From Hemileia vastatrix (taxonomy: Eukaryota; Basidiomycota; Pucciniomycetes; Pucciniales; Zaghouaniaceae): a stretch of DNA of 64,000 bases. The notes beneath the pieces were generated by a model, which saw only the letters and a list, made by a program, of their open reading frames with translations, had not been told where the DNA came from and ran no database searches. Below, in pieces: positions 27,562 through 52,646 of the stretch (positions within the stretch are counted from its first letter, which is position 1; each line of letters starts with the position of its first letter). Where the stretch lies: NCBI GenBank assembly GCA_030280995.1, contig JASXTE010000013.1, forward strand, positions 13,419,501 through 13,483,500, in the 5' to 3' direction. The translations under genes were made by a program, and so were the position numbers.

Positions 27562-28333
27562 TGTCACTGGAAGACCTACGCACAAGGTCGAGGATGTTCC
27601 TGAAAGTGAGATGAGAGATTTAGAAACTTCTTCGAAGCACAGAGGAATGATTCGAGGAAGTGATTCGAAGGTCACTCAAAGTAAGAGCTACAGGTTCGAG
27701 GTAGATTTGAGAAGAATGATAAAGTAGTTTCAAAGGTAATAGGAATTCTTAAGATCTCACAAAGGGTTGGAAACTCAATAATCAAAGATTTAGGATTTAG
27801 AAATGAATATTGAGAAAATAAAAGAAAGATACAATAACAATGATTTAACTTAAAGATTTTACCACTATTAATGTAAATATGTTTTATAATTTAATTCTAA
27901 GGAATATCGAACCAAATACCCAACCCTTTTATATCCTTTATTCCTCCTCGCATTGACCTCCCTTTCATTGCGCCATTCCCATACCATTGACCATTACTAA
28001 CATACACTTAGACCCTCTTTGCTAAATATCCGTCCATGCTCAATTTACCCCTTTTTAATTAATTAACAAAACTTTTAATGAAAACTACTACTGTACTATT
28101 ACGTTGATCCTAGCGCTGTGCGTCGCTTATTGAAAAGTAGACTAAGGCACCCTATTGGGAGATTGACTAATTTAGATTTAGAGTTTAGGCTAGCGCAGTT
28201 AAATAGTAAGTACACAAAGGGGAATTGCAGTTGCTATGGAGAATTGCTTTCTGCGCTTTGAGTATAGATTTAGGACTCGATATTATTGATTTAATGAGCT
28301 GATTTTGCCTCAAGTGTCACGTGGAGCGTGACA
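27562..28333 (-). repeat. E2 3' LTR (left)
   Basis: On plus it runs TGTCAC...GTGACA, a perfect 6-bp inverted end. It contains on plus TATAATTTAATTCT near 27889, the complement of the self-priming PBS. The LTR is relatively rich in CpG (GATTCGAAG, GACTCGATA). No ordinary polypurine tract precedes it on minus; the flanking bases read ACCCGGGCATC. Confidence 0.92.
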
Positions 28334-28506
28334 GATGCCCGGGTATAAGAATCGCGAACTCCGTTGAGCTTGAGCCATCTTCTCACACTAGTTTCCCTTC
28401 TTCTATATATATATTTTTTTCCTTATTTATTAATTTCCCTTTTATAACGAACTGCCCTACTCCCACACCTACGCCCCCACACCCTAAAGCGGATAAGGGA
28501 ATGATT

Positions 28507-28510
28507 ACGC
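28507..28510 (+). repeat. E1 target-site duplication, left copy
   Basis: ACGC directly left of the E1 LTR, repeated at 40587-40590 directly right. Joining the flanks restores the open antisense frame of E2, which supports these boundaries independently. Confidence 0.9.
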
Positions 28511-29625
28511 TGTGGTAGCCTAAAGTTTAGTATGGCACCTTAGTACGTAAATGGAGTTATTACGGTGTGCTAGATTGGCGTTATTATTTTTTTATATATA
28601 AAAGGGTTTTATTTAATTTATTTGAGTTTTAAATATGAAGAAATTGGTCACGAGCAAATGCCTACACAAATACAATTTATTTTACAGAGAAAACTTATTA
28701 TTATGGTCTGAAAAATTTATAAGTATCAAGTCAAGTCACTCAAGAACCTTGGGAAATTTTTTCAGAATTTTTACTATTTTTCTTATATTTTTAAATGAAT
28801 TTTAAAGTTTTATAGAAATATTTACGTTTTCAAAAATTACTTAACTTTGATGAATTTTCACGGGGTAATTAGAGCTGCGCAGACTACGAAAATTAGTTTG
28901 GTATGTAAAGGGGAAGTAGCTCTATTATGTGTAATTTTTCTAGATTTTTTATCATAGTTTTAAGGTTCTAATTGAGTCCGGAAGTCCGTACAAACTCCGT
29001 ACAGACTCTGTACGGACTCTGTAAGGGCTCCGGATTGACTCTGGAAGAGCTCTGGAGGGGAAAACTTAGGCACGTGACTAGGAATACTTAAGCGCTTCTC
29101 AAACTCGAAATTGAGGGGGGGGACACATCATACAGCTTAATCATTGACCACCACGGTCTCATTTTTTATTACTCAACAAATTAAAATAAATTGTAATACC
29201 CTTATAACTTTATATTTTATATATAACATTTTAGAAATACTACTCAAAAATTTAAATCACACTTCATACAGGGTATCTTTAGAAAGGTCTTCATCACTGG
29301 GACTGGATTATTGCTGTCTCATAAAAATTCAAATTAATATAAAAACATAAAAGTCAATCTTTTCAGATCTTTCACTGGTAAACCTTAATTGTTGTTATCA
29401 GTATTTCTTTCTCAACAGCTACAATCATTAAATCTCAATAAGCGTTAAATATTTTAGAGTTTCATTATTTTTTTAACAATCAGATCTAAGTAGACTGGTT
29501 AGCTTAGTGATTTAGAATTCTCATTTTGTTATTTTTATTGGAAGGACGGGGTTTTCCACTAAATCCACATATCTCCTCTGGATTCTGCTTACAGCAAGGC
29601 GACTGTAAGAGTTTACCTTACCATA
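28511..29625 (+). repeat. E1 5' LTR
   Basis: Starts TGTGGTAGCC and ends TTACCATA two bases before the PBS. A TATA-like TATATATAAAAG lies near 28593. A cluster of CCG/CGG triplets lies at 28976-29037. The short frame at 29144-29350 is repeated in the 3' LTR and is not a gene. Confidence 0.95.
28976..29057 (+). promoter_or_regulatory. CCG/CGG triplet cluster in the E1 LTR
   Basis: In otherwise AT-rich sequence, about 80 bp repeat ACTCCGT, GTCCGTAC, TACGGACT and CTCCGGA, with several CCG and CGG triplets in opposite orientation. The 3' LTR copy (39927-40020) has an 11-bp longer, rearranged version, so this is the fastest-changing part of the LTR. Clustered CGG triplets are the usual half-sites of Zn2Cys6 factors; a regulatory role is an inference. 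Confidence 0.4.
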
Positions 29626-29627
29626 GT

Positions 29628-29645
29628 TGGCACCCAACGTGGGGT
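29628..29645 (+). other. E1 primer-binding site, tRNA-Lys(CTT) type
   Basis: TGGCACCCAACGTGGGGT starts 2 bases after the LTR. Reversed, it gives a tRNA 3' end with CCA, a G discriminator base and a GTTGGGT acceptor strand. Complementarity continues into the T-loop (TTCGAA). Eukaryotic tRNA-Lys(CTT) ends almost identically, so the minus-strand primer is probably tRNA-Lys. Confidence 0.88.
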
Positions 29646-29802
29646 TCGAATTCTCTAGCTTTCTTTAAAAGACTTACTTGGATCAAGAACGTTATTAGCC
29701 TGCAAGAGGCTTATTTTCTGGAACTCTAATTGGATTTTTGTTATTGGCCTGCAAGAAGCTTGTTAATTTATCGATTGTTAACGCTTTTAATTACTTATTG
29801 GG

Positions 29803-32412
29803 ATGTCTTCTTCTGCTGTTGCTTATGGATCTTCTAACCCTCTTACTCCCTCAGTTAGAATTGTTTCTTGGGATGGCCCAAAGTTTGATGGGGAGGAGGT
29901 TAAATGGTTCATTAGCAGGTATGAAGCTGCTGCTGCTGTTGATGGTGCTTCTCATGTGGACATGGTGAAGCAAGTTAGATTTTTTATTGCTGATAGGGAG
30001 GTGGAAAAAGAGGTTATTGCTATGCAGGCATTCAAGGACAAGGATTGGGTTAAGCTTTCTAAAGCTATGGTTGATAGATGGGGTGTTAGGTTTACTATGA
30101 TGGACCTCAATAAAATTGTTGGAGACTGGCAAGCAAAAGGTGGAGTTTCTTCTATGGCTGACTTCAAAAAGCTCTGTGTTCAGTTTGATGAAGTGGTGGA
30201 ATATCTCATATTGGTGGACAAGTTAGTGCATGAGAATCAAGCAAAAGATTTGTTTTGGACAGCATGCAGTAGGGATATTCGAATGGACGTCTTGAAGGAT
30301 CTTTCAAGAAGAGATTTGATGAAGGAACTGCCTAATGGTGAGCAGAAACTGCCGGCTCTGGAGGTTATCAAGGACAACATTCAAGCCCGTTTAAAGTTAT
30401 TGGCGTTGGACAAATATCAAGAGTCATGCACTCAATATGTTAGCAAGGTTAGCAAAGTTTTGGCCGAAAACAACGATATTATGGTCAAAGCCCAGGAGGC
30501 CAAGAAGGCTCAAATGGGATTACCTGCTGCTAAAGTTGAGGGCAATGTAGATAATAAGATGGTCGATCACTTGGCCGATTTAACGAAACAATTAAAAATA
30601 TTTGTTCAAGAGACTCAGAAGGCCAACAAGGCCCCAATCGCTTCTTCGTCGACGTTGACTTCTTATCAGTCCAGAGGTTATGAACGTCGAAATTATAATG
30701 GCAATAATAATGGTAACCGCTTCCCAGGCAATGGGAGAAATGGTGGGAATGGTGGTAATGGATATAGAGGTGGCTACGATGAGCCAAAGATGTGCTCCTA
30801 TTGTAATAGGAGGGGGCACAGAGCAACAGTTTGTTTTGCTCTTGATAAGGATATGGATGCTGGGCGAGTTTTATTTGATGGTAAAGTTTATAAATTTCCT
30901 GATGGTTCGTTCATCAAGCCCAGTGATGGACAGTCTCCTTCTGATTTGGTCAGAAGAAGTTTAACGGCTGAAAGGAGAGCCAGATTTGAAGAGGTGACGG
31001 ATGAAGATGTTAATGCCAAGGGTGGCAAAAATGGTAATGGTAATGGTGGTAAAGCTGACAAGGGCAAGGAGAAAGAGGTCAGTAAAGCCACACTTTCTAC
31101 TTCTTTTGGTGGTTTAGAGCTGGCGACGGTTGCCCAGGTGGAGGGTAGCTGTATGGCCGGCAAATACAATGTTAATGCTGCTAGAAGAGCAGCTGCTACT
31201 AAGGCAAAAAGTAGCATTCAGAGCCAATTGAGGGCTAATCCTGGCAAGGCCAATAACAAAGTGAATCCTTACTCTAAGGACAAGAATTCTAGTGCTCAAA
31301 CTGCCGCCAACAAATTGAACCCTTACTCTAAGGACGAATTATATAAAATGCAGAAGGGGATTGCTGATATGGGGCCCCCTAGTTATGGAAAGCTTGATTT
31401 AAATGGTGAGCCTATGACAGAGGATGATTCGGATTCTGAGGAGGATGTACCGTTGGCGTCTCTACCCAGACCAAGTTTTAGCGGTCCCATCCCAATGGAG
31501 GGAGTAAGAAGGACTAGCAATGGATCAGGATTAGTGCAAGAAGCTGGTGACGGAGTTAGGGTTATAGAAAGTGAAGATGTTATAATGGGGGGTGAAGATG
31601 GCTCGGTTGGACCTCAAGAGGTACCCAGGGCCAAGGTTGTTAAATCAAAGGTCCAGTATGAGCGGCCAGTAGTTTCTGGTCAAGCTAATGCAATGGACGC
31701 AGTTTTGAATAGGGTGAATCAACTGCAGATTCCCTTATCTTTGGGGGAGTTATTTACGATTAGTCTGGCGCTTTCTGAAAAGCAAAAGAAGCATTTGACG
31801 AGGCGTCGGGTTTCCACTGGAGAGGTGGAATATATTTGTGAAAATGCTGAAAAGTTTGGGGAAGATGTAGATACGCATTTTTCCGCTCCCCTGGGTTACC
31901 TGGTGGTAACTCTTAATGGTAAAGAAGTAAAGGCCTTGGTCGATTCAGGGTCTCAAATTAATTTAATTTCATTGGAGCAAGCGACAAGTATAGGCTTGCC
32001 AATTAAAAGTGGAACTGGGGGAAACCTCAGAGGCATCGGAGGGCATGCAACAGAGCTGATGGGTACAGCTGAGCATGTCAGGTTAGGCATTGGTGGATCT
32101 GTTGGTAAGGTTCACTTTTATGTGGCCAGAGGAGCAGTCAAAACTGTTCTTGGTGGTCCTTTTTTGATGGATTTTGAGGCCAGGATAGGGTATCAAGCTG
32201 GCATGGGGATTAGTTTGGAAATCACTGGTGAAGATATGCGGAGGTTACATATGCCGTTAGCACCTCCTGGAGATGAAGGTTGGGAAACACGGCCAGGGAT
32301 TACTACTCTGTGCCAGTGTTGTGTATGCACCAAGAAGCGGCATATCAAACGGACGGCTTCTGGTGAATTATGTTTGTTGGAAAAAGATGGATGCCCTCAT
32401 TTTTTGGGGTAG
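29803..32412 (+). CDS. gag-PR: E1 Gag-protease
   Basis: An uninterrupted 869-residue frame. Gag capsid-like region about residues 20-290; a Gly/Asn-rich basic stretch about 290-325; a CCHC zinc knuckle C-S-Y-C-x4-H-x4-C at about 331-344 that binds the genomic RNA; a Ser/Asp/Glu-rich linker; and an aspartic protease around V-D-S-G-S-Q-I-N-L-I (about 712-721) with a later G-G-P-F-L-M-D-F-E segment. A Cys cluster (C-Q-C-C-V-C) lies near the C-terminus. The protease is in the Gag frame and the frame ends right after a slippery site. It would form cytoplasmic particles. The start ATG follows an untranslated leader of about 160 nt after the PBS. It is the only intact large gene in the window. Confidence 0.92.
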   Translation: MSSSAVAYGSSNPLTPSVRIVSWDGPKFDGEEVKWFISRYEAAAAVDGASHVDMVKQVRFFIADREVEKEVIAMQAFKDKDWVKLSKAMVDRWGVRFTMMDLNKIVGDWQAKGGVSSMADFKKLCVQFDEVVEYLILVDKLVHENQAKDLFWTACSRDIRMDVLKDLSRRDLMKELPNGEQKLPALEVIKDNIQARLKLLALDKYQESCTQYVSKVSKVLAENNDIMVKAQEAKKAQMGLPAAKVEGNVDNKMVDHLADLTKQLKIFVQETQKANKAPIASSSTLTSYQSRGYERRNYNGNNNGNRFPGNGRNGGNGGNGYRGGYDEPKMCSYCNRRGHRATVCFALDKDMDAGRVLFDGKVYKFPDGSFIKPSDGQSPSDLVRRSLTAERRARFEEVTDEDVNAKGGKNGNGNGGKADKGKEKEVSKATLSTSFGGLELATVAQVEGSCMAGKYNVNAARRAAATKAKSSIQSQLRANPGKANNKVNPYSKDKNSSAQTAANKLNPYSKDELYKMQKGIADMGPPSYGKLDLNGEPMTEDDSDSEEDVPLASLPRPSFSGPIPMEGVRRTSNGSGLVQEAGDGVRVIESEDVIMGGEDGSVGPQEVPRAKVVKSKVQYERPVVSGQANAMDAVLNRVNQLQIPLSLGELFTISLALSEKQKKHLTRRRVSTGEVEYICENAEKFGEDVDTHFSAPLGYLVVTLNGKEVKALVDSGSQINLISLEQATSIGLPIKSGTGGNLRGIGGHATELMGTAEHVRLGIGGSVGKVHFYVARGAVKTVLGGPFLMDFEARIGYQAGMGISLEITGEDMRRLHMPLAPPGDEGWETRPGITTLCQCCVCTKKRHIKRTASGELCLLEKDGCPHFLG
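32400..32406 (+). promoter_or_regulatory. -1 ribosomal frameshift site (T TTT TTG)
   Basis: In the Gag frame the codons read CAT TTT TTG GGG TAG, so the heptamer T TTT TTG fits the X XXY YYZ rule and lies four bases before the stop. A -1 shift continues into the pol frame F-F-G-V-A-G-A-D-H, which overlaps gag by 43 nt. E4 keeps the identical heptamer and stop (56782-56776 on minus). No stimulating downstream structure was worked out. Confidence 0.8.
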
Positions 32413-33428
32413 CAGGGGCTGATCACTCTAATGTTGTAATCTCTCCTCAGGATGAGATCCCAGATTGCAATAGGTCAGCTCACTTGGAGATAATTCAAGT
32501 GGATTCTCAATTATTTTCTGTTAATATTACTTTGGAGTGCAAATACGTTATGGACTTTTCTATATGTTTATTGGATTTATCCTGTTTTTCTATTAAATTT
32601 AAAAACGGTGAAAAAGGCAAAATGGGCCAAATTAGGTTGGATAAAAATTGGAGGGGTATGTTTCCGGGCCTCCAGCAAGAGGTTAAACTGCAATTATCTC
32701 CTTCTATTATGGACCTCCAGCAAGAGGGTAAACTGCAAAAATCTTATCAAAATACGATTAAAAATCTCGGTATAAGTAAAACACAAAAAAATAATTTATG
32801 TGAAAATGTTATTCCGGTTCCCCAGCAAGAGGGTAAACTGCGAAAATCTTATCAAAATCCAATAAAAAATCTCAGTATAATTAAAACACAAAAAAATAAT
32901 TTTTGTGAAAATTCAATCCCGAGCCTCCAGCAAGAGGTTAAACTTCCAACTTTCTTTACGGGTGATTTACTGTTGGATAAGGGAAGCAAAGGTGTTGGAA
33001 AATCTGTTTATAAATTAGACAAGGGAAAGGAAAAAAGGGTAAAATTTAAAAATGAAATAAAATATTTTTCTAATTTTTCTTATTCCAATTCTGGCGATGA
33101 AGAAGATTCATTTGATGAAAGTTTTAATGGCGATACAAAAGAAAATGTTTTACCTCAAGTTTATTTAGATGTGGAAGCAGCCAAATATAAAAAGGTAGCA
33201 AATAAAGTTCGACCTATTAATGAACCGCTACCTGCTGAATTAAATCCACCTTTGAGAAGACCAAGGTTATCAAGAGATCCTTATGAAAGTCCCTTGGTAA
33301 AGAATCCGCCTGAATTTTCTGAGATGTCAAGAATCACTTTTGAGAGACTTGGTGTTGTTAATTTTGGACCTGATGGTTGGTTGTCTGGAGAAGAGAAGAA
33401 GTTGTTGTTGGATGTGATGGTCAAGTGA
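32407..33428 (+). pseudogene. E1 pol, N-terminal spacer domain (ends at TGA)
   Basis: Reached by -1 frameshift. About 340 residues with no known fold. It carries four repeats of L-[QP]-Q-E-[VG]-K-L because the DNA has the CCTCCAGCAAGAGG-TAAACT motif (32669, 32714, 32820, 32924). A conserved C-terminal part (P-R-L-S-R-D-P-Y...V-N-F-G-P-D-G-W-L-S-G-E-E) leads into RT. The frame stops at TGA 33426-33428. E6 has AGG and E4 has CAA here, so the ancestral codon was probably CGA. The same frame continues beyond. Confidence 0.75.
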
Positions 33429-35495
33429 GAGAAGGCCATTGCTTTTGTAGAAGAGGAGAGGGGTGTGTTGAAGCATTCCTATGGGGAGCCTTACAAGATT
33501 CCTGTGGTATGTCATGAACCGTGGCAGCAGAAACCGATTCCTATTCCGGCTGCATTAAAAGAAGCCTATATTGAAGTTGTCAGAGAACGGATACGCACTG
33601 GACTGTATGAGCAATCAACATCAAGTTATTCTAGTCCGGTATTTTGTATCAAGAAACCGAATGGCAAGCTTAGAGTTGTTCATGATCTTAGGGAATTAAA
33701 TAGGGTTACAATAAAGGATGCTGGGATACCGCCTAGTGCTGAGGAGTTTGTTGAAGCGTTTGCAGGGAGGGTGTGTTATGGTTTGGGAGATATTATGGGT
33801 GGATATGATGAGAGAGAGTTACATCCGGACTCAAGGCCTCTCACTACATTTGATACACCACTAGGACGTTTACAGTTAACAAGATTACCTCAAGGAGCAA
33901 CAAATTCGGTTGCAGTTTATCAAGCTCAGATGGCTTGGATCCTTCAAGACAAAATTCCACAATATGCTGGAATCTTTATAGATGATGGAGGAATTAAGGG
34001 ACCAACAACCGACTATGATAACCAGGTGTTGGAAGAGAATCCCGGGATATGCAAATTCATTTGGGAGTTTGCAATTACATTAGAAAGAATCTTGTTTCGA
34101 ATTGAAGAGGCTGGCTTAACTATTTCAGGTTCAAAATTTTCATGTTGTGTGCCAGCCTTAGAAATATTAGGCCATATGGTATGTAGAGAGGGTAGGATTA
34201 TGTCCAAGAAGAAAGTTAACAAAATTCAGTCCTGGCCAAGACCCAAGAATACGACCGAAGTTAGAGGGTTTTTAGGCGTTTGTGTATATGTTAGAATGTT
34301 TATCAAGGACTTTTCTTCATTGGCAGCTTCATTGAGACGGTTAACGAGAAAGGATGCAGACTGGGAGTGGGATGAAGAGTGTGAGAAGGCGTTTGTGAAG
34401 TTGAAGGAGGTTGTAGGGAAGGATTTAGTCCTGCACAAGTTGGATTATGGAAAAAATGCTGGCAGAATTTATTTAGCAGTTGATTCAAGTCAGGTTGCAG
34501 CTGGGGCGGTTTTGTCTCAGATGGATAAAGCTGGTTACATCAGGCCAGTTAGGTATGAATCTGTAGTATTTACTGATTTGGAATCAAGATATTTTCAACC
34601 AAAATTGGAATTATGTGGTGTGGCAAAAATATTGAAGAAACTTCAGCATATTTTGTGGGGGCAACATTTTGAGTTGCAAGTGGATGCGAAATCGTTAATC
34701 CAGATGATTAGTTCCCCAATTTTACTGAATGCACCCATGACGAGATGGGTAGCTTTTATTCAACATTTTTCGTTTGATTTAGTTCATAAACCTGGCAAAA
34801 CTTTTACTATGCCAGATGGTTTATCAAGGAGACCACCCACTGAAGAAGATTCAGACTCAGAAGAGTTCGATGAAGATATACCTATTTTCAAAGCCAGCAC
34901 TAAAGGAGCTGAAGACTTTCCATACCTCCCCCATGAGGTTAAACTGGCAGGACTATTGTGTTTAGATTATGGTGAAGATGACCTCCACCAAGAGGATAAA
35001 CTGGAAAATAGTTTTTATGTTAATAAAGGTGTTGGAAAAGGTGTAGATAAATTCGGTAGAAAGGAGGTAGAAGAAGATGTGGTGTATGTAGAGGAATATG
35101 GATTGGTAGTGTGGGATAGTAGTAAATTAAGGAATGGTGTATATGTTGGAGAATTAGAGAATTTAAATAAAAAGGTGGATAAAGAGAAAGAGGTATTTTC
35201 AAATACGGTTTACGAAGGATCCAAAGGTTCAGAAGAAAAACGTCGACATAGCTCGATTAAAGATTTATTTAGGGGTCAACGATTATTGGCTCATTCATGT
35301 GCAGGTGATATTGGTGATAGAGAAGTCTCTATTGATGTTATATTAATCAATTTTCAAGATGAAGTCTGGGGTCAGACTGGTTTTTATTTTTTGTTAGTCA
35401 AATATTTGTTGACTTTAGAGAGGCCAGAAGATTGTGAAGACGATGAATGGGTGGCTATCAAGAGGAAGTCATCTACGTTTTACCTATCTGGTTGA
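33429..35495 (+). pseudogene. E1 pol, reverse transcriptase and RNase H (ends at TGA)
   Basis: RT motifs in order: S-S-Y-S-S-P-V-F-C-I-K-K-P-N-G-K-L-R, D-L-R-E-L-N-R, L-P-Q-G-A-T-N-S-V and the catalytic F-I-D-D (near 33975-33986, in place of the usual Y-x-D-D), then S-G-S-K-F-S-C-C...L-E-I-L-G-H. RNase H: Y-L-A-V-D-S-S-Q (about 34475), K-L-E-L-C-G-V-A-K and L-Q-V-D-A-K-S-L supply the acidic residues. A connector with two more mini-hairpin motifs (34925, 34982) follows. The frame ends at TGA 35493-35495. It converts the RNA genome to DNA in the particle. The active sites look intact but stops on both sides prevent a full Pol. Confidence 0.85.
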
Positions 35496-36638
35496 CGCTT
35501 AATGAGGAGAAGGTATCCAAATCCTCAAGTAGTTATAACTTAAGAGAAGGGGCAAGAATTAGTTTTGAAATCACTGCATGAAGATCTCGGGCATAGAGGC
35601 GTTGGAGAAACGTTTAGAAGAATTTCTGATCGATTTTGGTGGCCTGGCATGAAGATGGCTGTTAAACAGTGGGTTCAGTCATGCGAAGAATGTCAAAGAC
35701 GAAGTTATTTAAGGCCAAAAGAACTGGGACGCGCGACCGGAGAATATACGCTCTTTGGGAGAGTTAGTTTAGATGCCGTTCATATAAAAGAGGGACGGTA
35801 TAAATATTTAATTGTGGCCAGAGATGATTTATCTGGTTGGGTAGAGGCAGCGCCTCTTATTAATTTAACTGCCAAAAATGTGGCAGAATTTTTTTTGAAT
35901 AATTGGGTATATAGGTATGGGGTGATGAAGTTGGTAACGGTAGATGGAGGTCCTGAATTTGGGACAGAGTTTAAAGAGGCCGTATTGAAAGTTGGATCAA
36001 AGGTTAGGGTAGCAACCCCATATTATCCTGAAGCTGAAGGCATGGTTGAAAGAGGGCATCAAGTTATTAAGGATGCTTTAGTTAAAATGTGTGGGACAAG
36101 TGCCAAAAAGTGGAGGCACTATTTACCTTTAGTTTTATTTGCTGATCGAATCACAGCCAAAAGGACGACTGGATTTTCACCTTATGAACTTGTTTTTGGA
36201 CAGAAAGCAGTTTTACCGGTTGATTTAGAAGCTGAATCATATCTTGGAGTTGACTGGGACAGGGTCAAAACTACTGAAGAATTATTGTGTGCAAGAATGA
36301 TGCAGCTAGAAAAGAAAGAAGAATATTTAGAAAAGGCATATTCGCGGATGATGAAGATCTGAAATCAATCAGTCAGATATTGGGATGAGCTGTTGGCACA
36401 TCGATTAAGGAAACCTTTGAACCCAGGTGATATGGTCCTGGTGTATAATAGGAGTTTGGAAAGTCAGTGGGGAAAGATGTTTGCAGATAGGTGGAATGGA
36501 CTGTATAAAATCAAGGAGCAAGTTTCCGGCGGTTCATATGTGCTAGAAGAGTTGGATGGAGTAGTATTGAAGAAGAGGGTAGCAGCCGATCAAGTGAAAC
36601 GGTTCTATCCTAGAGGCACCAGGAGTGCCGAAGTCTAA
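35496..36638 (+). pseudogene. E1 pol, integrase (TAA and TGA inside)
   Basis: After TAA at 35541 the frame 35565-36362 carries the zinc-binding H-x-x-L-G-H...C-E-E-C, then the catalytic core: Asp in V-S-L-D-A-V-H, Asp in V-T-V-D-G-G-P-E-F and Glu in G-M-V-E-R-G-H. After TGA 36360 the C-terminal domain (36393-36638) has G-D-M-V-L-V-Y and W-N-G-L-Y-K-I-K. Integrase inserts the DNA copy in the nucleus; no chromodomain is present. TAA 35541 is also found in E4, while E5 and E6 have CAA. TGA 36360 corresponds to CGA in E4. Confidence 0.85.
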
Positions 36639-36976
36639 CTCCAAAATGAGGATAAACTACAATTTTAATGACATTTATCAAATTTTATGGATTCCTCTGC
36701 AATGAGGATAAACTATGATATCGACAAAATTTTATGGATACCTCCGCAACGAGGATAAACTATCTTCTTTTTTTATCAAAAATACTTTACTATCGTTACA
36801 CTGTATATGGTCGACGAAACTATGATGAAACTTAACGAAATTCGAGAAGACCTTCTTTGAAATTTTCAAAAACTTAAAATTCTTAAAATATGGGTGAAGA
36901 TAGTGTTGGAAAAATTTTAAAATTTATTGGAAGAAGTGTTCACAGGGGAACCTTCTTAATTTAATATTGGCAAGTG

Positions 36977-37020
36977 TGGGGGTAATTGATGGGCTGGCTG
37001 CTCTATACACAATTACCCCA
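36977..37020 (+). other. Hairpin H1 (TGGGGGTAATTG...CAATTACCCCA)
   Basis: An 11-bp inverted repeat around a conserved loop GGGCTGGCTGCTCTATA. Counterparts: E4 52338-52382, E5 60115-60160 and 59317-59358, E6 21313-21360, E3 7721-7766, 8634-8680 and 8889-8934. The loop is as conserved as the arms, which suggests RNA structure plus a loop function. Confidence 0.75.
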
Positions 37021-37236
37021 TAATGTTCGTTTCCAAAATTTTCCCTGTTTCTAGTTGAATCCTGGCTTTGTCTTTTAATTTTAGGAAGTCCACTAAGACT
37101 ATAAACTGGAATGAATCAAGAGATACCGCTCTCAACGCCGGATTCAAGATTCTTTTTATTTTATTTTGTTTTTGATTTTTTTTATGTTAGATTGTGATTT
37201 CTTTTCTTTAATATATATTATGAATTATTGTAAAGG

Positions 37237-37300
37237 TGATGCTCACTGGTGGTCTCTAATCATTTTTATAAATTGGAGGGAGCCCACCCAGTGATCATCA
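37237..37300 (+). other. Hairpin H2 (CTCACTGGTGG...CCACCCAGTGATC)
   Basis: Imperfect inverted repeat: TCACTGGTGGTCTC against GGGAGCCCACCCAGTGA, joined through an A/T-rich loop. Counterparts at E4 52047-52104, E5 59882-59940, E6 21601-21659 and E3 8424-8490. Confidence 0.7.
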
Positions 37301-37368
37301 TTATAAAAAATTATCTTCTAAAAACTTTCATTTATTTTCTTTCTTTTCAATTTCTCAAAATTTTGTAA

Positions 37369-37394
37369 CCACATCAAGTTGCACTTGGATGTGG
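37369..37394 (+). other. Hairpin H3 (CCACATCAAGT...ACTTGGATGTGG)
   Basis: Near-perfect hairpin with one bulged G and a 3-nt loop. Counterparts at E4 51911-51938, E5 59660-59692, E6 21730-21757 and E3 8201-8228. A conserved GGTATGATGTCGAGGG-type segment follows in sense orientation. Confidence 0.75.
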
Positions 37395-37557
37395 GTATGA
37401 TGTCGAGGGTACGGCTCATCAAATGGCCGGGGGGCATCTTTTAAAAATTTTATTTTGAAATTTTTTTATTATTATTACTTTTTTATCTTTCTTTTCACAT
37501 TCATTTATCTTTCTTTAAAAATTAAATTATAACTTTTATTTCAAAACTATCTTTTTT

Positions 37558-37752
37558 AAAAATAAAATAAAATAAAATAAAATAAAAATAAAATAAAATA
37601 AAATAAAATAAAATAAAATAAAAATAAAATAAAAATTAAAAAAAAAATAAAAATAAAATAAAATAAAATGAAATAAAAATAAAAATAAAAAAAAATAAAA
37701 ATAAAATAATAAAAATAAAATAAAATAAAATAAAATAATAAAATAAAAAAAT
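37558..37752 (+). repeat. AAAAT microsatellite
   Basis: About 195 bp of AAAAT/AAAAAT units. Related elements have shorter A/T-rich tracts at the same point (21930-21960, 51660-51860, 59560-59840), so this is an expandable part of the superfamily's 3' region. Confidence 0.9.
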
Positions 37753-37895
37753 TAATTAATTAAATCAAAATTATTATTATATTTCTTAGTTTATTTTTCA
37801 GTCTTCATTCTTTTTAGTTTATTCATTTAGTTTAGACAGGAAACAGGGTCTAGGGGAAGTCAATACCTATGCGATTTTACTTCAAGACATCTGTT

Positions 37896-38793
37896 AGTCC
37901 TCCAAGACTTTAAACTGGCTACTGTTCAAAACATTCTTTATGGTTTTTTTATACTTATTTTGACATCTGTTAGTCCTCCAAGACTTTAAACTGGCTATTT
38001 TTCAAGACTTTCATTAAGGATAATTTTCTTTATCTTGACATCTGTTAGTCCTCCAAGACTTTAAACTGGCTACTGTTCAAGACATTCTTTAAGGTTTTTA
38101 TACGTATTTTGGATCTGTTAGTCCTCCAAGACTTTAAACTGGCTAATTTTCAAGACTTTCATTAAAGATTTTATATTGTAGCTGTTAGTCCTTCAAGACT
38201 TTAAACTGAATTTCAAGGATGATTAAGATTTTATGGATATTTTTGGAGACGGATTTTTTTTATTTTTTTATCAATCAAATGTTAGGTCCACCAAGACCTT
38301 AAACTGGAGTGTTATCAAATTTTAGGTCCACCAAGACCTTAAACTGGACTTTTATCAAGCTGTTGGGTCCATCATGACCTTAAACTGGATTTCTTATCGA
38401 TTAAATGTTTGGTCCACCATGACTTTAAACTGGTAGTTCATTCATTGTTTAGTCCACTATGACTTTAAACTGGAAAATTAATATCTGCAGGATAATTCAG
38501 CATTCATTGGTCCACTATGGCCTTATACTGGATTACTTGTTGATAAAATGTTTGGTCCACTATGACATTAAACTGGATTATCAAATTTATTCAATCTTTG
38601 GTGAAGCCTAGGCCTTATTTGGGAATATTTCAAGTTATTTATGCACTTAAACGATCTTTGGTCCACCAAGACCATAAACTGGCAATCGATTATATGTTTG
38701 GTCCACCAAGACTTTAAACTGGAATGTCAATCTTGTTTGGATAACTCAATTCAATCTTTTAATTTATCACTGTCCACTAAGACTCTAAACTGG
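37896..38793 (+). repeat. Array of 15 mini-hairpins followed by TTTAAACTGG
   Basis: Starts at 37896, 37972, 38047, 38120, 38187, 38285, 38325, 38366, 38411, 38451, 38509, 38554, 38660, 38700 and 38772. Each is a 4-bp stem and 6-nt loop, such as AGTC-CTCCAA-GACT or GGTC-CACCAA-GACC, followed by N-TTAAACTGG. Spacing is irregular (40-106 bp) and spacers are not repeated. Ten further copies lie in the pol spacer, the RNase H-integrase linker and just after pol. Confidence 0.85.
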
Positions 38794-39047
38794 TTATTCA
38801 ATTATTTCTGGAATTGGGTGCTGATAAGCTTTAAGAGGTTAAAATTTTAGGTGGTGATGATGCTAAGGGAAGCATAATGGTTAATTAGGTGAAATTTGTG
38901 GCGCTTTAACATGGTCTAAAGTTAAAATTATTATTGGAAGCCTGGCAAAAGTATTTTATGGGTTTGCTGTATGGCAAAGTTTGAAAATTGTGATGAAGGA
39001 ATCAGAAGTTAGGATGGTAGTTGGTTTTTAGGGAATGATTTTTTTTT

Positions 39048-39290
39048 AGTGCCTCAGTGTTAGGCCATTTTTGGTGTGAAGCTTGGAGGAACTTATGGCG
39101 AGATTGGAATCATAGAATTCGGCTCAGTGGGGGGCCCTATGAGGTTGGAATCAGGAGTATTCAGCTCATAGGAAGATCCACTCTCTCAATGCTGTGACAA
39201 GAAGGAAGACTGGTATATGGGAGTCTGAAGGGATTCAAACCTTGCTCTCGTAGTGGAATCATCACAAGATTTATATTATTTTATTTTATG
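39048..39290 (+). other. Pre-LTR conserved module
   Basis: Contains GCTTGGAGGAACTTATGGCG, two copies of TTGGAATCA...ATTC-GCTCA and AGGGATTCAAACCTTGCTCTC. The last looks like a tRNA T-arm or B-box (stem AGGG/CCTT around a 7-nt loop). Counterparts at E6 24060-24295 and E4 50586-50800; E5 has three copies of a related unit (58898-59172). Function unknown. Confidence 0.5.
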
Positions 39291-39450
39291 TTATATCAAG
39301 CCAGAGAAGAAGAAACAACGTTTTTATTATCAAGAATTAAAAGAAGACCAGCTAAAACAAATTTATCAAATTACTTTATTGGAAAAGATAATTCTTTTGG
39401 AATTGCTCAACCACTTATGCAAAGTTATAAGAATGGGGACATTCTCAATT

Positions 39451-39460
39451 GGAGGGAGGA
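39451..39460 (+). other. E1 polypurine tract
   Basis: GGAGGGAGGA directly before the TGTGGTA start of the 3' LTR. The same tract precedes the 3' LTR in E3, E4 and E5. Confidence 0.9.
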
Positions 39461-40586
39461 TGTGGTAGCCTAAAGTTTAGTATGGCACCTAAGTACGTAA
39501 ATGGAGTTATTACGGTGTGCAAGATTGGCGTTATTATTTTTATATATATATAAGGGTTTTATTTAATTTATTTGAGTTTTAAATATGAAGAAATTGGTCA
39601 CGAGCGAATGCCTACACAAATACAATTTATTTTACAGAGAAAACTTATTATTATGGTCTGAAAAATTTATAAGTATCAATTCAAGTCACTCAAGAACCTT
39701 GGGAAATTTTCCCAGAATTTTTACTATTTTTCTTATATTTTTAAATGAATTTTAAAGTTTTATAGAAATATTTACGTTTTCAAAAATTACTTAACTTTTA
39801 TGAATTTTCACGGGGTAATTAGAGCTGCGCAGACTACGAAAATTAGTTTGTTATGTAAAGGGGAAGTAGCTCTATTATGTGTAATTTTTCTAGATTTTTT
39901 ATCATAGTTTTAAGGTTCTAATTGAGTCCGGAAGTCCGTACGGACTCCGTTTCGATTCCGCTTTGACTCCGTACGGACTCTGTACGGGCTCCGGATTGAC
40001 TCTGGAAGAGCTCTGGAGGGGAAAACTTAGGCACGTGACCAGGAATACTTAAGCGCTTCTCAAACTCGAAATTGAGGGGGGGGGGACACATCATACAGCT
40101 TAATCATTGACCACCATGGTCTCATTTTTTATTACTCAACAAATTAAAATAAATTGTAATACCCTTATAACTTTATATTTTATATATAACATTTTAGAAA
40201 TACTACTACAATTTAAATCACACTTCATACAGGGTATCTTTAGAAAGGTCTTCATCACTGGGACTGGATTATTGCTGTCTCATAAAAATTCAAATTAATA
40301 TAAAAACATAAAAGTCAATCTTTTCAGATCTTTCACTGGTACACCTTAATTGTTGTTATCAGTATTTCTTTCTCAACAGCTACAATCATTAAATCTCAAT
40401 AAGCGTTAAATATTTTAGAGTTTCATTATTTTTTTAACAATCAGATCTAAGTAGACTGGTTAGCTTAGTGATTTACAATTCTCATTTTGTTATTTTTATT
40501 GGAAGGACGGGGTTTTCCACTAAATCCACATATCTCCTCCGGATTCTGCTTACAGCAAGGCGACTTTAAGAGTTTACCTTACCATA
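39461..40586 (+). repeat. E1 3' LTR
   Basis: 1126 bp, starts TGTGGTAGCC and ends TTACCATA. It is nearly identical to 28511-29625 except for scattered substitutions and the rearranged CTCCG tract (39927-40020). Followed by ACGC (40587-40590). Confidence 0.95.
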
Positions 40587-41480
40587 ACGCGACAATTTTC
40601 CCAAGCTTGCACGGCTTGTGAAAGCATGGAATACTTCTGTGTCGAAAGTACGGCGACTCGAGGCCCTTGCCAGAAATGCGAGTTTTGCCGTTGGCGACCA
40701 GTGGCGTGCGATGTGTTGACGAAGAACGCAGAGATCGAACAACGGTTTACCAAGACCAAGTTTTTGGTAATCCCTAAAATAAAAGATGTGGTCGAAGACA
40801 TTTGGGATGTCTCGGTTGGAGATGAACAATCGGTGGGGGAGAATGATAAGGAGCTCAACAACGAGATCACAACCTGGGTAACCCAGGCCACAAGTTCAAA
40901 GTGGGGTGTCGAAGAAGAGGTCGACGAATTGGTGGAGGAAGATGAAGATGAAGTCCCTGTTCCAGGGTGGGCACCCAAGAAACGACGGGTGGTCATCAAA
41001 GATGACGAGGAGGAAAGAGAAGCAGAGGTTGAGGTGGCGCCAAGGTTATTCTTAGAACCTGACCCCATCTTCGAAGTAAGCTTTTAGTTGTTGTTTTTTT
41101 TAAGGATGAGGTTACTGATGAGTTTTGTTTAGACATCAAATACCATCGAAGACCCAATTGGGGAGCCTGCGTCACTTTTGCCAACTGAGGCAAACCCTCC
41201 GGTCACGGGTGGAGTCGAAGAACCTGAAGACACGCTGGACCAGGTGTGGTCGAAGAAACCTCTTCAGGGTCAACGAGTAAGGTTCCCAGAAGAGTTGTGT
41301 GGGGAGGTCGACACAATTATCGACGCTGCTTCCTTCGACGTGGCAGAGGAACTCTTGGAGATTGGAGAGGTGGTTCCGGTAGGAGAGGGGGAGGTATTTG
41401 AGAAATGCAGGAAGGAGATAAGAGTAGTTTTGGAGAAGATGAAAATATTGGTTCGAGAAAAATTAAAAGAAAAAATTTGA

Positions 41481-42480
41481 AATGAAAAGGAGAGATGTAA
41501 AGAAGTAGAAAAGTAGAATTGTATTTTACTTTTATTTTTTTTTATTTTTTTTATTATTGTAGGTGAATATTATTATTTTTTTATAAGATTTAGGAGAGAG
41601 AGAAGAAAAAAGAAGTTTTAAATAAAATTTTGCTTTAGAATTTGAAAGAAGAAATTTAAATAAGAAAGAAAGAAGTTATTTAATTGAAGGAAGTTTTAAG
41701 TTTTAAAAGAAAAAATTTATGTAAGAAAAGAGAGAGAAAAAGAAACGGTTGGTGATTGAGATGAGTTTGTTGAATTGAGAATTTAATGAAAGAAGAATTT
41801 GTTTTTTTTGCGAAAAGTTTTTGATTGATTTTTTTAGGAAATTTTAGTTGAAAAGAGAGGAAGAAGAAAGAAAAGAAAAAAAAAACAGAATTTAGAATTT
41901 AAAGAGAATTTGAAAAGAAGAATCATTTGTTCGAAGAATTTTTATAGGGAGATTTAGAGGTTGAAATTAAGTTCGAGGAAATGGTCGTGTCGTACAAGAT
42001 TTGATGGTTCGAAGGAAAGAAAATTTTAAAGCGAGAATAAATTTTTAGGAAAGAAAATTTTACAGAGAATTTTAAATTTAAGAAAGAATGTATTTAGAGA
42101 ATTGAAAAAGAAAAAGAGAAAGAAAAATATTTAGAGAGATTTAAGAGTTTTTTTTTTATTTATTTATTTTATTTTATTATTTATGTTTGTTCTATTTATT
42201 TTATTTTATTTTATTATTTATATTTATTCTATTTATTTTATTTTATTTTATTTTATTTAATTTTAATTTTTGATTTTATTTTTAGTTGGTTTTGGAGGAA
42301 ATTTTATAGAAGGAGAAGAAAGAAAAAGAAGAGAAAAAAAAGAAAACAAGGCTAAGAAATTTAAGAGGTGTTTTTGATTTTTTACGAGAAAAAGAAAGAA
42401 AGAAAAAGAAAAAGAAAATTTAAAATAAAAGAAACTTTAAGGTTTTGGTTTTAAAGGATATTTCAAATGAAAAGATTTTA
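41481..42480. other. E2 purine-rich non-coding tract
   Basis: About 1 kb with long A/G-rich runs on plus (GAAAGAAAGA types) and a TTTTATTTTATT block near 42160-42260. It separates the antisense gene from the chromodomain end of pol, so the two genes converge here. No open frame of interest. Confidence 0.6.
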
Positions 42481-45400
42481 GGAGTTCAGGGGCGTTAGAA
42501 ACATTGATGGCTGGTTCCCAGGATGTTTTGTCTGAGTCATTGAGGAAGCCTTCCCATTCCACGAGGTATTGAAGTTTCCCTTTCCCATTTATGAATCAAG
42601 GATACAACTTACTTCCCACTCTAGATGATCTTCTACTTCGACCGGTTCCGGAGGGGGTTGGTTCTTGCCCGGGTATATTTCTTGAGCCAGTTCCAGGAGA
42701 GATACATGGAAAACAGGGTGAATCGCCTGCCATTTAGGAGGTAACTTGAGTCGAAATGCAGTTTTAGAGACTTCAGAGTCGATTTCGAATGGTCCCAAGC
42801 GCTTTTCAGCCAGTTTCTTTGATGGTCGTGTTGTTCGAATGTTTAGTGCGTTGAGCCATACTTTGTTGCCTGGTTTAAAGGAAGGAGAAGATTGTCGATG
42901 TTTGTCGGCCTGTTCCTTGTATCTTCGAATCACTGATTCCAAATTTGTTTTAAGTTCTTCTTGGAGTCGTGATATAGTTCAAAGATAATGTTCCGCAGGA
43001 TGATTAGTTCTTACATGGATTGAGTTGAATCGAGGATGTCTTCCATAAATGGTTTCGAAGGGAGATTGTCGTGTCGAAGAATGAGTCGAGTTATTATAAG
43101 CAAATTCTGCCAATGGTAACCATGTGGTCCAATCGTCTTGTTGGTAAATGACATACATTCAAAGATATTTTTCGAGGATTTGGTTAACTCTTTCTGTTTG
43201 ACCATTGGGTTCAGGGTGATAGGCCGTGGAGAGGTTCCTTGTGATATTGAGTTGTCGACACAGTTGGGTCCAGAATGTGGATACAAACAATGAGCCTCTA
43301 TCTGAAATAATATCATTTGGTAAGCCGTGTTTGGAAAATACATATTCTAGAAACAATTTTGACAAATCTTCTGCTGTAGCAGTAGTAGTGGTTTTAATGA
43401 AAATAGACATTTTTGAAAATCTATCTACTATTACTAATATAGCATCAAAATCATTAGAAAAAGGAAGTTGAGAAATGAAATCCATCGATAAAGATTCCCA
43501 AGGTTTAGAGGGAATAGGAAGTGGTTGAAGCAACCCATGCTTCCGGTGACAGGGAGCCTTATTCCTATTACATTCATAACAAGCTGTTATATAGGCCTTG
43601 ATTTCCCTGGTCATACCTGGCCAGAAGAAATACCTTGCTATTAACTGGTAGGTTTTATCAACCCCAAAATGACCAGCTAATGGAGAATCATGTCAACTGT
43701 TGAAAATCCATAATTTTCTCTCATTGTTGTCGGGTATGACTACTCTACCATTGAAGACTAATAGACCTGATTCAATACTAAATCTTTTGGCCCCTTGCTT
43801 TGAGAGTATTTTGTCTTTTAACCCTAAACAATATTTGTCCTTCGACTGAGCTTTGAGGATGTTGGATAGTGGATTTCGAAAAGATTGAATTTTCATCGAA
43901 TTAAGTTTATGAGTCGTTAACATTGATTCGTTGAAGATTGATTGCACATTTGCTGGGTTCTTGTCAGCAAATGCGTCCCCCGGCTGTGGGTAAACGTCTT
44001 CCTGACGTGACAAGATATCTGGGACAATGCAGTTTTTACCTGGGAAATAGGAAATAGAGAAGGAAAATTCAGACAAAAATTCAGCCTACCTGGCTTGACG
44101 CCTGTTTAACACTTTGGAAGACATGAAGTATTTTAAAGCATTATTATCTGTTAAAATTTGAAAAGGACTATCTAGGCTGAGAAGAAAAGAACCCCATTTT
44201 TTAAGACAATGGATAATAGCTAAAAGCTCTTTGTCATGAATTTCATAATTTAATTCTGCGGCTATGAGTTTGAATGACTCAAAAGCAACAGGATGAAACA
44301 AATTTGTTTCAGGATTTAATTGGGAGATGACCCCTGCAATAGCATAATCGCTTGCATCTGTCTCAACTATTGTCGAGGCAGAAGGATCAAAATGTCAAAG
44401 AATTGGGGCTGTGGTGAACGGCGTTTTTAGTGCTTCGAATTCCTTTCGTGCTGTAGAAGTAAAAACAAAAGGAATGTCTTTTCTAAGAAGAGAAGTAAGA
44501 TTGGAAATAGTTTTAGAGTAATCTTTAATAAATCTTCTATAGAAGTTGGCAAAACCCAAAAATCCTTGGAGCGATTTAATGTTTTTGGGCTCAGGCCATT
44601 CCAGGATTTTCTGGACTTTTTTGTCATCCATGACTAAACCGTCAGTGGATAACGTAAAACCCAAAAAATCAATTGATTTGAGGTGGAATTCGCATTTATT
44701 ATGCTTGGCGTAGAGACCATGATCTCGAAGACAATTTAGGACCTGTCGAACATGATGAATATGTTCATCTAGTGTTTTTGAGAATATTAAAATATCATCT
44801 AAATAGACGACTACAAATTGTTCAACAACATCTTGAAAGATGTCATTAACAAAAGTTTAAAAAGTTGAAGGTGCGTTACATAATCCAAAAGGCATAACTA
44901 AATATTCAAAACTACCAAATCTAGTGCGCATTTCAGTCAGTAGTTCATGACCTTCTGCAATGCAAATCAGATTGTAAGCGCCTCTAAGATCAATTTTAGA
45001 AAAGAAATTAGCACCATTGAAAAGGGTAAGAAGTAATGACATAGGAGGAACAGGATATGCATTCTTCTTAGTGACTGTGTTGAGCTTTCTATAGTCAACA
45101 CACAACCTAAGACTACCTTCCTTCTTTTTTACAAAGAGGACAGGGGAGCTGGTTGGAGATTTACTGGCTCTGATGAAACCTTTGGCTACATTCTCTGCAA
45201 TGTAGTCTCGAAGAACTTGAGATTTGTCCTTCGACAAAGAATAGACAGGACCTGCTGGAGGTACTGGGCCTATTAACTCTATTTGATGGTCGTAGGGTCG
45301 ATGAGGTGGTAACTTATCGGCCTTGCGGATTGAGAAAACATTGAGGAAATCGTGGTAGATTTCCGGTAGAGTTGATTTAATGGCTTCAACGTTGATTTGG

Positions 45401-46068
45401 TTGTCCTCTTCATCTTCGAGAGAATCTTTCGAGGGGATACCTGTATTGAGAGAGCAGAATTTGATTACTTTGAGGCAATTTAAATCCTCTTTGAGTGAAG
45501 TTATCGAGCTAGAAGGGTTAGCCAATTGCTTATTTAGAGAAAGATCAGATGCTTGCAAGTCATCTGGCAGAGATTTGTCCTCTAGCAGGACGTTGTCAGG
45601 CGGGTTGTTTAACTCCCTATTGACCTGCATTGAAGAATCAGAAATATACTTAGAGCGTGGGGTGATCAATCCCTTAGTCCAATCAATATCGGGATTCCAA
45701 TGCGTTAAAAAGTCATGGCCAAGAATGGTATCCTCCATCCTTGGGGCATCCAAGACTGATAATTCCCACTCGAAGGGGGGAAAGTTTGGAAAGTTGAAAA
45801 CCCATAAAACTTTCTTACTTACCCAATATTTGGGTTCCTCTGATTCGACCAAATAGATTGGATTTCGATCGATATCTGTAAATGTTAGTTGAAGCTTCTC
45901 GGCAAAAGATAAACTAACAAAAGAAATTGAAGCTCCAGAGTCTATAAGATAACTGAAGGGGATATCCTCCTTAAAAAGAATGAATCTCAGGCGGTTTAAG
46001 GCTACTCCAGTCCTTAAGACATGGAGGTTCTGTGCACTGGGAGAGATAAGATAGTTTGCTTTGCACAC
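42481..46068 (-). pseudogene. E2 pol: protease, RT, RNase H, integrase, chromodomain
   Basis: Minus-strand frame broken by stops. Protease Y-L-I-D-S-G-A-S (residues 40-47 of the 46068 frame). RT with V-D-Y-R-K-L-N, M-P-F-G-L-C-N-A-P-S-T-F and catalytic Y-L-D-D (near 44800). RNase H with V-E-T-D-A-S, K-E-L-L-A-I and L-T-D-N-N. Integrase with C-Y-E-C, then Asp (S-M-D-F), Asp (I-I-S-D-R-G) and Glu (Q-T-E-R-V-N). A G-P-F-E-I-type module is followed by a chromodomain (E-W-E-V...L-V-E-W-E-G-F, W-E-P), frameshifted near 42585. Chromodomains direct integration to heterochromatin. Stops near 44857, 44394, 44085, 43692, 43158 and 42980 are each one transition from the expected codon. Confidence 0.88.
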
Positions 46069-46080
46069 AAGTAAACTATC

Positions 46081-47271
46081 TACTAGTTTTTTGACTTCGA
46101 ACTAGTACCTTCTCTTTCCTTCAACTTTACACAGTCTTCCAACTTGTGCTTACCCCCACAATACATACATAACCCATTATCTGCTCGTCTCTTCCTCTCA
46201 GCTTCTTTAAGTTCCCCTTTAGGATCCAGTACTTTGCTGATATTGCCTGGGGTAGAGCCTTTTGGTCAAGGTTTATCCTTTCCCTTATTGGGTTTGGATT
46301 GAGTCGAGGCGGATTGATTTGGTCGTGGGTGTGAAGAAGTTCCCAATTTAAAATTTAGGCCTTGAGATTTTTTGGCATATCGACAATGTTGAAGTCGTCC
46401 TTGATAAACGCCGTCAAGATCAAGGGTTCAATCGATTAAATCCGTTAAAGTAGTCATCTTCTGACCGTGAAGATTTAATTGATCCAGAATCCTCAAAGGA
46501 AGTCCTTTCTTGAAATATAATTAAGGGCAGCATCATTCCAACCTACTCCAGATTGAAGTGCTCTGAAGTTCGAAATATATTCAGAGGCTTTACCATTATC
46601 ACTCATGCGAAGAAAATCAAGTTCAATTTCTGCGTTGTCTGTTACATTAGGGTGCCCAAAAACAACGTAAAAAGTTGGTCTTCGAATTTTTCCCAATTAT
46701 TGATAAGTAAGTGGGTTTCTGTCAAAGAAAGCATGAGCAGATAAGGTTCGAACCATCTTGCTGCTTTCCCGGCTAGGAATGAAGAAGCTTAAACAACCTT
46801 TGATTGGTCGCTGTTAAAGGTTCGAGGGTCATTATGGAACAGTAGCTTACAGGTTTGCAAGAAGGGTCGCAATCTGTCGGGGTGTTCTCCGTCGAATTTG
46901 TCAGGAGATTTCATAGAAGGAGTTTTGAACTTAGATCCCTCCGAAGACGTTGGATTTGAAAGGGTTTTCATGAAAAGTCTCATGAAATCTTCCAGAGAGT
47001 TAGATGCTCCAGGTTCTGAGGATTGACCAGAAGGGTGATTGGCTGGGGCGGATGGTGCCTCATGCATTGTATCCTCTCCTTCTTCTTCATCACTAGAATC
47101 CTCAAAATCTTGTGGGATGTCTTCTACAGATTGAACTGAATGTTGCCGCTCCCTAAGGTCGAGTGGTTCCAAAGAGTGAGTGCGGGAAACAGACCTTGTG
47201 GCTGTTGGCCTGCCCCTAGCACGAGCTCTAGTAGTAGCGCCCGTTGGAGGAGTGCGTTGAACAGGTGCCAT
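46081..47271 (-). pseudogene. gag: E2 Gag (frameshifted)
   Basis: Starts at ATG 47271 with a basic N-terminus (A-R-A-R-G-R), then an acidic linker (D-S-S-D-E-E-E-G-E-D). A conserved capsid region has F-K-T-P-S-M-K-S-P-D-K-F-D-G-E-H-P-D. A stop lies at 46789 and the frame continues to a second piece (46493-46696). A 1-base frameshift near 46500 follows, after which L-P-L-R-I-L-D-Q-L-N is in another frame. A zinc knuckle C-M-Y-C-G-G-K-H-x4-C lies near 46135-46175. It would form the particle and bind RNA. The plus-strand chromovirus remnant at 26428-26975 is a relative. Confidence 0.8.
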
Positions 47272-52640: not shown

Positions 52641-52646
52641 TTTTTT

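What the first reader, a model, noticed from the sequence alone, without database searches (positions are those of the whole stretch)
28501..41480. Antisense spliced Zn2Cys6-type gene inside a chromovirus, split by a later insertion
Between pol and the 3' LTR of E2, on the opposite strand, a frame opens at 28501, runs up to E1 at 28510 and continues in the same frame from 40591 after one ACGC copy is removed. With a well-formed 57-nt intron (41076-41132) it is 280 codons long. Its first cysteines fit C-x2-C-x6-C-x12-C-x2-C-x6-C exactly, followed by a possible P-K-K-R-R nuclear signal. A retroelement carrying an antisense gene for a putative DNA-binding factor could control its own LTR or silencing. 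E1 landed 10 nt behind the start codon.
Basis: partly seen in the sequence, partly recalled or inferred. Interest (0 to 1): 0.88.

Follow-up and report, generated by a model that had tools for sequence, protein, structure and literature searches.

The report
Antisense spliced gene inside fungal retrotransposon
A jumping element in what looks like a rust-fungus genome carries, backwards next to one of its ends, a small intron-containing gene for an unknown cysteine-rich and possibly nuclear protein; similar backward genes are known in plant elements and in a human leukaemia virus, but no relative of this protein was found.

Summary
E2 is a chromovirus on the minus strand (LTRs 27562-28333 and 47345-48115, 5-bp target duplication, chromodomain found). 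Its best named RT relatives are from the rust fungus Austropuccinia psidii. Between its chromodomain and its 3' LTR, on the opposite strand, lies a two-exon gene: start 28501, E1 inserted after 28510, frame resuming at 40591, a 57-nt GT-AG intron with a CTGAT branch-type site, stop 41480. Both exons show strong three-base periodicity (0 of 1000 shuffles each). The DNA behind the gene and two stretches of E1's corresponding region show none. So it is a protein gene, not a chance frame.

The Zn2Cys6 label is not supported. The cysteine spacing fits only if one of seven cysteines is ignored, PF00172 does not match at E<=10, and the first loop lacks basic residues. Protein searches found no relative. 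Whether other E2 copies carry the gene could not be tested, because the genome search did not complete.

Best reading: a transposon-borne antisense accessory gene, arranged like those of plant Grande/Retand elements and retroviral HBZ, probably encoding a nuclear metal-binding regulator. Its function is inferred.

The parts
27562..28333 (-). 3' LTR of E2 (ends TGTCAC/GTGACA on the + strand; GCTAT outside it at 27557-27561)
   Evidence: 13 substitutions and 1 gap against the other LTR (counted from the list)
47345..48115 (-). 5' LTR of E2 (GCTAT outside it at 48116-48120); TATAAA on the minus strand at 47715 and 47670
42589..46101 (-). E2 pol frame (protease, RT, integrase, SH3-like pieces), 1171 codons with 6 internal stops plus the last
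42440..42595 (-). Chromodomain of E2, in another frame than the pol frame that ends at 42589
   Evidence: PF00385 E=7.8e-9
28334..28500 (+). Putative promoter and 5' UTR of the antisense gene: TATATA at 28404, pyrimidine-rich stretch before the ATG
   Evidence: consensus only, not proof of function
28501..28510 (+). Start of exon 1 (ATG and the next 7 nt), cut off by E1
28511..40586 (+). E1, another Ty3/gypsy element inserted in the gene (LTRs 28511-29625 and 39461-40586; ACGC on both sides)
40591..41075 (+). Rest of exon 1: seven-Cys cluster (40608-40709), acidic stretch, APKKRRVVIK
41076..41132 (+). 57-nt intron, GTAAGC...TTTAG, CTGAT at 41115-41119
41133..41480 (+). Exon 2 (115 codons and stop), Lys/Arg-rich C-terminal end

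Best explanation
E2 is a Ty3/gypsy chromovirus that carries an accessory gene on its antisense strand, between the chromodomain and the 3' LTR, with a compact promoter-like region next to the 3' LTR. The gene makes an acidic protein of about 280 residues with an N-terminal cluster of seven cysteines (probably zinc-binding), a KKRR nuclear-signal-like run and a Lys/Arg-rich tail. Shown: the coding nature, the position and orientation, and the later split by E1; the intron is predicted from sequence with strong support. Inferred: because the genomic RNA is read from the other strand, its splice sites are not seen by the spliceosome, so the intron survives each retrotransposition round, which a gene in sense orientation could not ensure. 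Inferred further: the protein acts in the nucleus on the element's own expression or integration, as HBZ does for HTLV-1 and as is proposed for the plant Retand antisense proteins, while the overlapping antisense RNA may also dampen the sense RNA. In this copy the gene lost its start region to E1.
For: Periodicity and codon score in both exons. In a scan of the whole window this is the only antisense signal inside the stretch between a recognised pol and its LTR for E2 and E1; in the E1 stretch 36363-39460 no window passed the threshold. LTR pair with target duplication around it. Chromodomain. Precedents: antisense coding regions between pol and 3' LTR in the Retand elements examined, TRP28 in 97% of clusters, DNA binding predicted, nuclear location for Grande (PMC11963269, abstract and passages); HBZ and APH spliced antisense genes acting on the 5' LTR (PMC10186651, passages); spliced antisense transcripts in TEs of a fungus (PMC10648671, passages).
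Against: Only one copy seen; no second E2 copy was available. No homologue among 1715 and 8 word-sharing candidates. No transcript data. No clear counterpart in the other Ty3/gypsy elements of the window. Third-position G+C (0.54, 0.50) differs from the gag/pol frames (0.30-0.40), which would also fit a captured gene. Trained on E2 frames alone, the codon score of the right frame barely exceeds the best minus-strand frame (0.084 against 0.071; 0.070 against 0.068). Nothing ties the protein to DNA, zinc or the LTR. The single-sequence AlphaFold model of exon 1 is uninformative (mean pLDDT 44).
Confidence: 0.58

Rival explanations
1. Transduced or captured host gene: this E2 copy (or a few) picked up a host gene with its intron, at the DNA level and in antisense, and it has no role in the element.
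For: Third-position G+C of the exons (0.54, 0.50) is higher than that of the gag/pol frames of the window (0.30-0.40), as might be expected of a gene with another history. Only one copy seen.
Against: No host homologue found in the protein search, whose database holds many A. psidii proteins. The same place and orientation serve as an accessory-gene slot in a plant Ty3/gypsy lineage.
Confidence: 0.25
2. A spliced antisense long noncoding RNA whose open frame is incidental.
For: [quoted passage not shown] The open length of exon 2 alone is not exceptional (50 of 500 shuffles).
Against: Strong periodicity in both exons, open frame kept across the intron, right frame best by codon score.
Confidence: 0.08
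3. A true Zn2Cys6 (Gal4-type) transcription factor carried by the element.
For: The spacing C-x2-C-x6-C-x12-C-x2-C-x6-C can be read. A pattern of that kind (x5-16 in the middle) arose in 0 of 100000 shuffles of the 276-residue translation and 7 of 100000 shuffles of its first 60 residues; the clustering of cysteines accounts for part of this.
Against: No PF00172 match at E<=10. The first loop, ESMEYF, has no basic residue. A seventh cysteine allows other pairings (CX2C-X16-CX2C). No sequence relative in the PDB at E<=10 for the N-terminal 56 residues.
Confidence: 0.09

Closest known systems
Antisense aORFs of plant Ty3/gypsy elements (Grande, RIRE2, Retand lineage; TRP28 proteins)
   Same: Gene antisense to gag-pol, between pol and 3' LTR; nuclear location reported for Grande and DNA binding predicted for TRP28 (PMC11963269, abstract and passages)
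   Different: Retand is a non-chromovirus plant lineage; here the element has a chromodomain and is probably fungal; no TRP28 match; this gene has a predicted intron and a cysteine cluster
HTLV-1 HBZ and HTLV-2/3/4 APH genes
   Same: Antisense gene expressed from the 3' LTR side, spliced forms; a model for feedback on the 5' LTR (PMC10186651, passages)
   Different: HBZ is bZIP, this protein is cysteine-rich; other element class; no expression, location or function shown here
Zn2Cys6 (Zn_clus, PF00172) fungal transcription factors
   Same: One reading of the cysteine spacing
   Different: No profile match, no basic first loop, seven cysteines
Spliced TE-antisense lncRNAs of Blumeria hordei
   Same: Spliced RNA from the antisense strand of TEs in a plant-pathogenic fungus (PMC10648671, passages)
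   Different: Reported as not coding; this one looks coding by periodicity, and has no transcript evidence yet

Membership tests
Chromovirus (Ty3/gypsy with chromodomain) | protease, RT and integrase in order on one strand | tested here: met
   Pfam hits on separate E2 pieces: RVP_2, RVT_1, Integrase_H2C2, rve, SH3_Tf2-1
Chromovirus (Ty3/gypsy with chromodomain) | chromodomain at the integrase end | tested here: met
   PF00385 E=7.8e-9 at 42440-42595
Chromovirus (Ty3/gypsy with chromodomain) | LTR pair with target duplication | tested here: met
   GCTAT on both sides
Antisense aORF of LTR retrotransposons | coding frame antisense, between pol and 3' LTR | tested here: met
Antisense aORF of LTR retrotransposons | present in most copies of the element family | not testable with these tools
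   17 genome-search requests did not complete; single copy in the window
Retand TRP28 protein (PF04195) | TRP28 domain | tested here: not met
   no PF04195 among Pfam matches up to E=10
Zn2Cys6 (PF00172) | C-x2-C-x6-C-x5-12-C-x2-C-x6-8-C spacing (rule recalled) | tested here: met
   one reading of seven cysteines fits
Zn2Cys6 (PF00172) | match to the Zn_clus profile | tested here: not met
   no match at E<=10 for the 276-residue protein or for its first 60 residues; HMMER filters drop most weak matches
Zn2Cys6 (PF00172) | basic residues in the first CX6C loop (recalled) | tested here: not met
   the loop reads ESMEYF
HBZ-like antisense regulator | bZIP domain | tested here: not met
   no bZIP match in Pfam; APH-2, 3 and 4 also lack it
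HBZ-like antisense regulator | nuclear protein acting on the 5' LTR | not testable with these tools
   only an NLS-like KKRR run

The most novel reading that the evidence does not exclude
Fungal chromoviruses have evolved, independently of plant elements and of HTLV, an antisense-encoded, intron-containing nuclear regulator next to the 3' LTR. Antisense placement is what lets the intron survive reverse transcription, and the protein, with a cysteine cluster that matches no described family, tunes transcription, silencing or chromatin targeting of its own element family.
Probability: 0.3. Interest if true: 0.75.

Novelty: new variant of a known kind. Interest (0 to 1): 0.5.

Why it matters
If other copies keep the gene, it would be a third setting, after deltaretroviruses and plant Ty3/gypsy elements, of an antisense accessory gene at the 3' LTR, in a fungal group whose genomes are swollen by such elements. 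It would make a direct test possible of whether retroelements repeatedly evolve antisense self-regulators. The intron gives a ready-made strand-specific marker in RNA data.

Tried and rejected
Zn2Cys6 family: no profile match, no PDB sequence relative at E<=10 for the N-terminal 56 residues. Death_3 (PF21733) at E=0.051 (14.1 bits) and E=0.14 (12.6 bits) is far under its cut-off of 27 and was dismissed. The opposite-strand open frame 40574-41083 (169 codons): no Pfam match at E<=0.1 and a negative codon score; taken as a shadow of the coding strand.

Second copies: none in the window by tblastn. Viral-contig scans with the antisense protein, the E2 integrase piece and an RT alignment of 11 sequences and one genome-contig scan with the antisense protein: 11, 9, 17 and 88 pattern matches, none confirmed by tblastn. 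Protein searches: 1715 and 8 candidates, none at E<=1 and E<=10 respectively. Structure of exon 1 from a single sequence: mean pLDDT 44, so no fold search was made. Rfam at gathering scores: no match in the window. Selection argument from stop codons: at the pol stop density 1.57 stops are expected in the antisense gene, P(0)=0.21, so its intactness alone is no evidence of selection. Literature: ten searches, of which one search listed 10 of 879 papers and one search listed 8 of 11. No title or abstract start in the listings described an antisense protein gene in a fungal LTR element. Term finds in three rust-TE papers gave 0 occurrences of 'antisense' (PMC12210899, PMC8063080, PMC10067951). 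PMC8444563, a stem rust small-RNA paper with 3 occurrences, was seen in a listing only. Passages of PMC4007536 were seen and not used. This is an open-access sample and does not show that nothing is in print.

Full report
What is there. E2 runs on the minus strand. Its LTRs lie at 27562-28333 and 47345-48115, bounded by TGTCAC/GTGACA (the last base but one of the right copy differs), with GCTAT outside both ends. The LTRs differ by 13 substitutions and one gap (counted inside the LTR from the list). Pieces of its pol frame match protease, RT, integrase and the Tf2-1-type SH3 domain. The chromodomain lies at 42440-42595 (PF00385, E=7.8e-9). E2 is therefore a chromovirus. Its gag and pol are broken: the 1171-codon pol frame has six internal stops, and by eye gag reads on only by changing frames. 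The RT search scored 7982 candidates and found 6955 at E<=0.001, of which 120 were listed; the best row is an unnamed protein (51% identity), and most named rows are Austropuccinia psidii, at 40-67% identity over parts of the query. With the low G+C content of the window and the 33.8% reported for A. psidii (PMC8063080, abstract and passages), the source is probably a rust fungus, though by these identities hardly A. psidii itself. That is an inference; no species name was given.

The antisense gene. On the + strand an ATG stands at 28501, 167 nt past the edge of the 3' LTR, after a TATATA at 28404 and a pyrimidine-rich stretch. Ten bases on, E1 begins, with ACGC on both sides. The frame resumes in phase at 40591 and runs to 41075. 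A 57-nt intron (GTAAGC...TTTAG, 41076-41132, CTGAT at 41115-41119) follows, and exon 2 runs to the stop at 41478-41480. The two exons give 276 codons right of E1, and 280 in all.

Is it coding? Very probably. Three-base periodicity is 32.9 in exon 1 and 31.4 in exon 2 against shuffle means of 5.6 and 5.4; none of 1000 shuffles reached either. The same test on the adjacent 41481-42440 and on two E1 stretches gave 2.6-4.3, reached by 540 to 804 of 1000 shuffles. The + frame has the best codon score of six in both exons under three training sets; the margin is clear when trained on all nine gag/pol pieces or on E1, and slight when trained on E2 alone. Open length is weaker evidence. Shuffled spliced exons gave a frame of 270 codons or more in 13 of 5000 cases; the exon-1 stretch alone was matched in 2 of 500, exon 2 in 50 of 500, the unspliced region in 32 of 500. 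A scan of the whole window in 300-base windows (threshold G>17) marks gag/pol frames, this gene, and stretches that I did not assign: 9401-10400, 12101-12400, 14501-14900, 16501-16800, 22901-23500, 24501-25200 and 49901-50500, most of them with several stops per window; 9401-9700 has none. Between the pol frames and the 3' LTR of E1 (36363-39460) no window passed the threshold.

What the protein looks like. It is acidic (pI 4.36; 65 acidic and 33 basic residues of 276). It has seven cysteines in its first 39 residues, an acidic stretch followed by APKKRRVVIK, and a Lys/Arg-rich C-terminal end. No Pfam model reaches its cut-off and Zn_clus does not appear at E<=10. The first loop lacks basic residues. 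The cysteines could equally pair as CX2C-X16-CX2C plus extras. I call it a probable metal-binding cluster of unknown family. No relative was found. The AlphaFold model without an alignment is uninformative.

How it may work. The full-length sense RNA of E2 presumably starts in the 5' LTR (TATAAA on the minus strand) and covers the antisense gene in reverse, so the gene's splice sites are read backwards and not used. The intron can thus pass through reverse transcription unchanged; a gene in sense orientation would tend to lose it. This is reasoning from the anatomy, not a result. The most likely role, by analogy and not by test, is a nuclear regulator of the element. HBZ of HTLV-1, expressed in antisense from the 3' LTR with spliced and unspliced forms, lowers expression from the 5' LTR (PMC10186651, passages). 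Antisense coding regions between pol and 3' LTR are reported for the Retand elements examined, with a TRP28 domain in 97% of clusters that is predicted to bind DNA (PMC11963269, abstract and passages). A second, cheaper role needs no protein: antisense RNA acting on the sense RNA, as suggested for spliced antisense lncRNAs of Blumeria TEs (PMC10648671, passages). The coding signal argues that the protein mattered as well.

Timing. E1 sits inside the gene, so this copy is broken. The E1 LTRs differ by 24 substitutions over 1115 bases and the E2 LTRs by 13 over 772 (counted). Since E1 must be the younger, the two insertions were probably close in time, within the noise of these counts. Six pol stops are more than the 1.43 expected from the E2 LTR divergence (P=0.0035; P=0.03 if the divergence were 2.7%, 0.12 if 3.9%). 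E2 may thus have been copied with a broken pol, or it suffered hypermutation. The antisense gene has no stop, but at the pol density a gene of this size escapes with P=0.21, so no selection can be claimed from one copy.

What is missing. The question that decides the matter, whether other copies keep the gene, needs the host genome. Seventeen requests to search it did not complete. The verdict therefore rests on one copy: a spliced antisense gene in a probably fungal chromovirus, of a known arrangement but with a protein that matched nothing searched, function inferred.

Noticed in passing
41481-42480: One kilobase behind the antisense stop is almost free of C on the + strand (2% C, 18% G), a low-complexity stretch; part of it (42148-42284) matches TTTTA-type repeats in E1 (37557-37771) on the other strand.
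   Followed up: partly
42589-46101: E2 pol has six internal stops although its LTRs differ by only 1.7%; 1.43 stops would be expected since insertion (P=0.0035). It may have been mobilised in trans or hypermutated.
   Followed up: partly
9335-10400: Minus-strand stretch with coding-like periodicity, open for 140 codons at 9335-9757 and broken by stops beyond; no Pfam match at E<=0.1 for that piece.
   Followed up: partly
17149-21088, 29791-36662, 52645-56513, 60305-63692: Four related Ty3/gypsy elements of the E1 family, about 75-86% alike in matching pol stretches.
   Followed up: partly
26455-26975: A fragment 71% identical to the E2 gag region, in inverted orientation, shortly before the 3' LTR of E2; perhaps a remnant of a related element.
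   Followed up: no
28985-29127 against 39946-40088: A patch of E1's LTRs is only 90% alike, with an 11-base gap nearby, while flanking stretches are 97-99% alike; it may be a conversion or recombination patch.
   Followed up: no
48244-48695: Just outside the 5' LTR of E2 lies a stretch about 77% alike to the E1 LTR, inverted; perhaps a remnant LTR of the E1 family.
   Followed up: no
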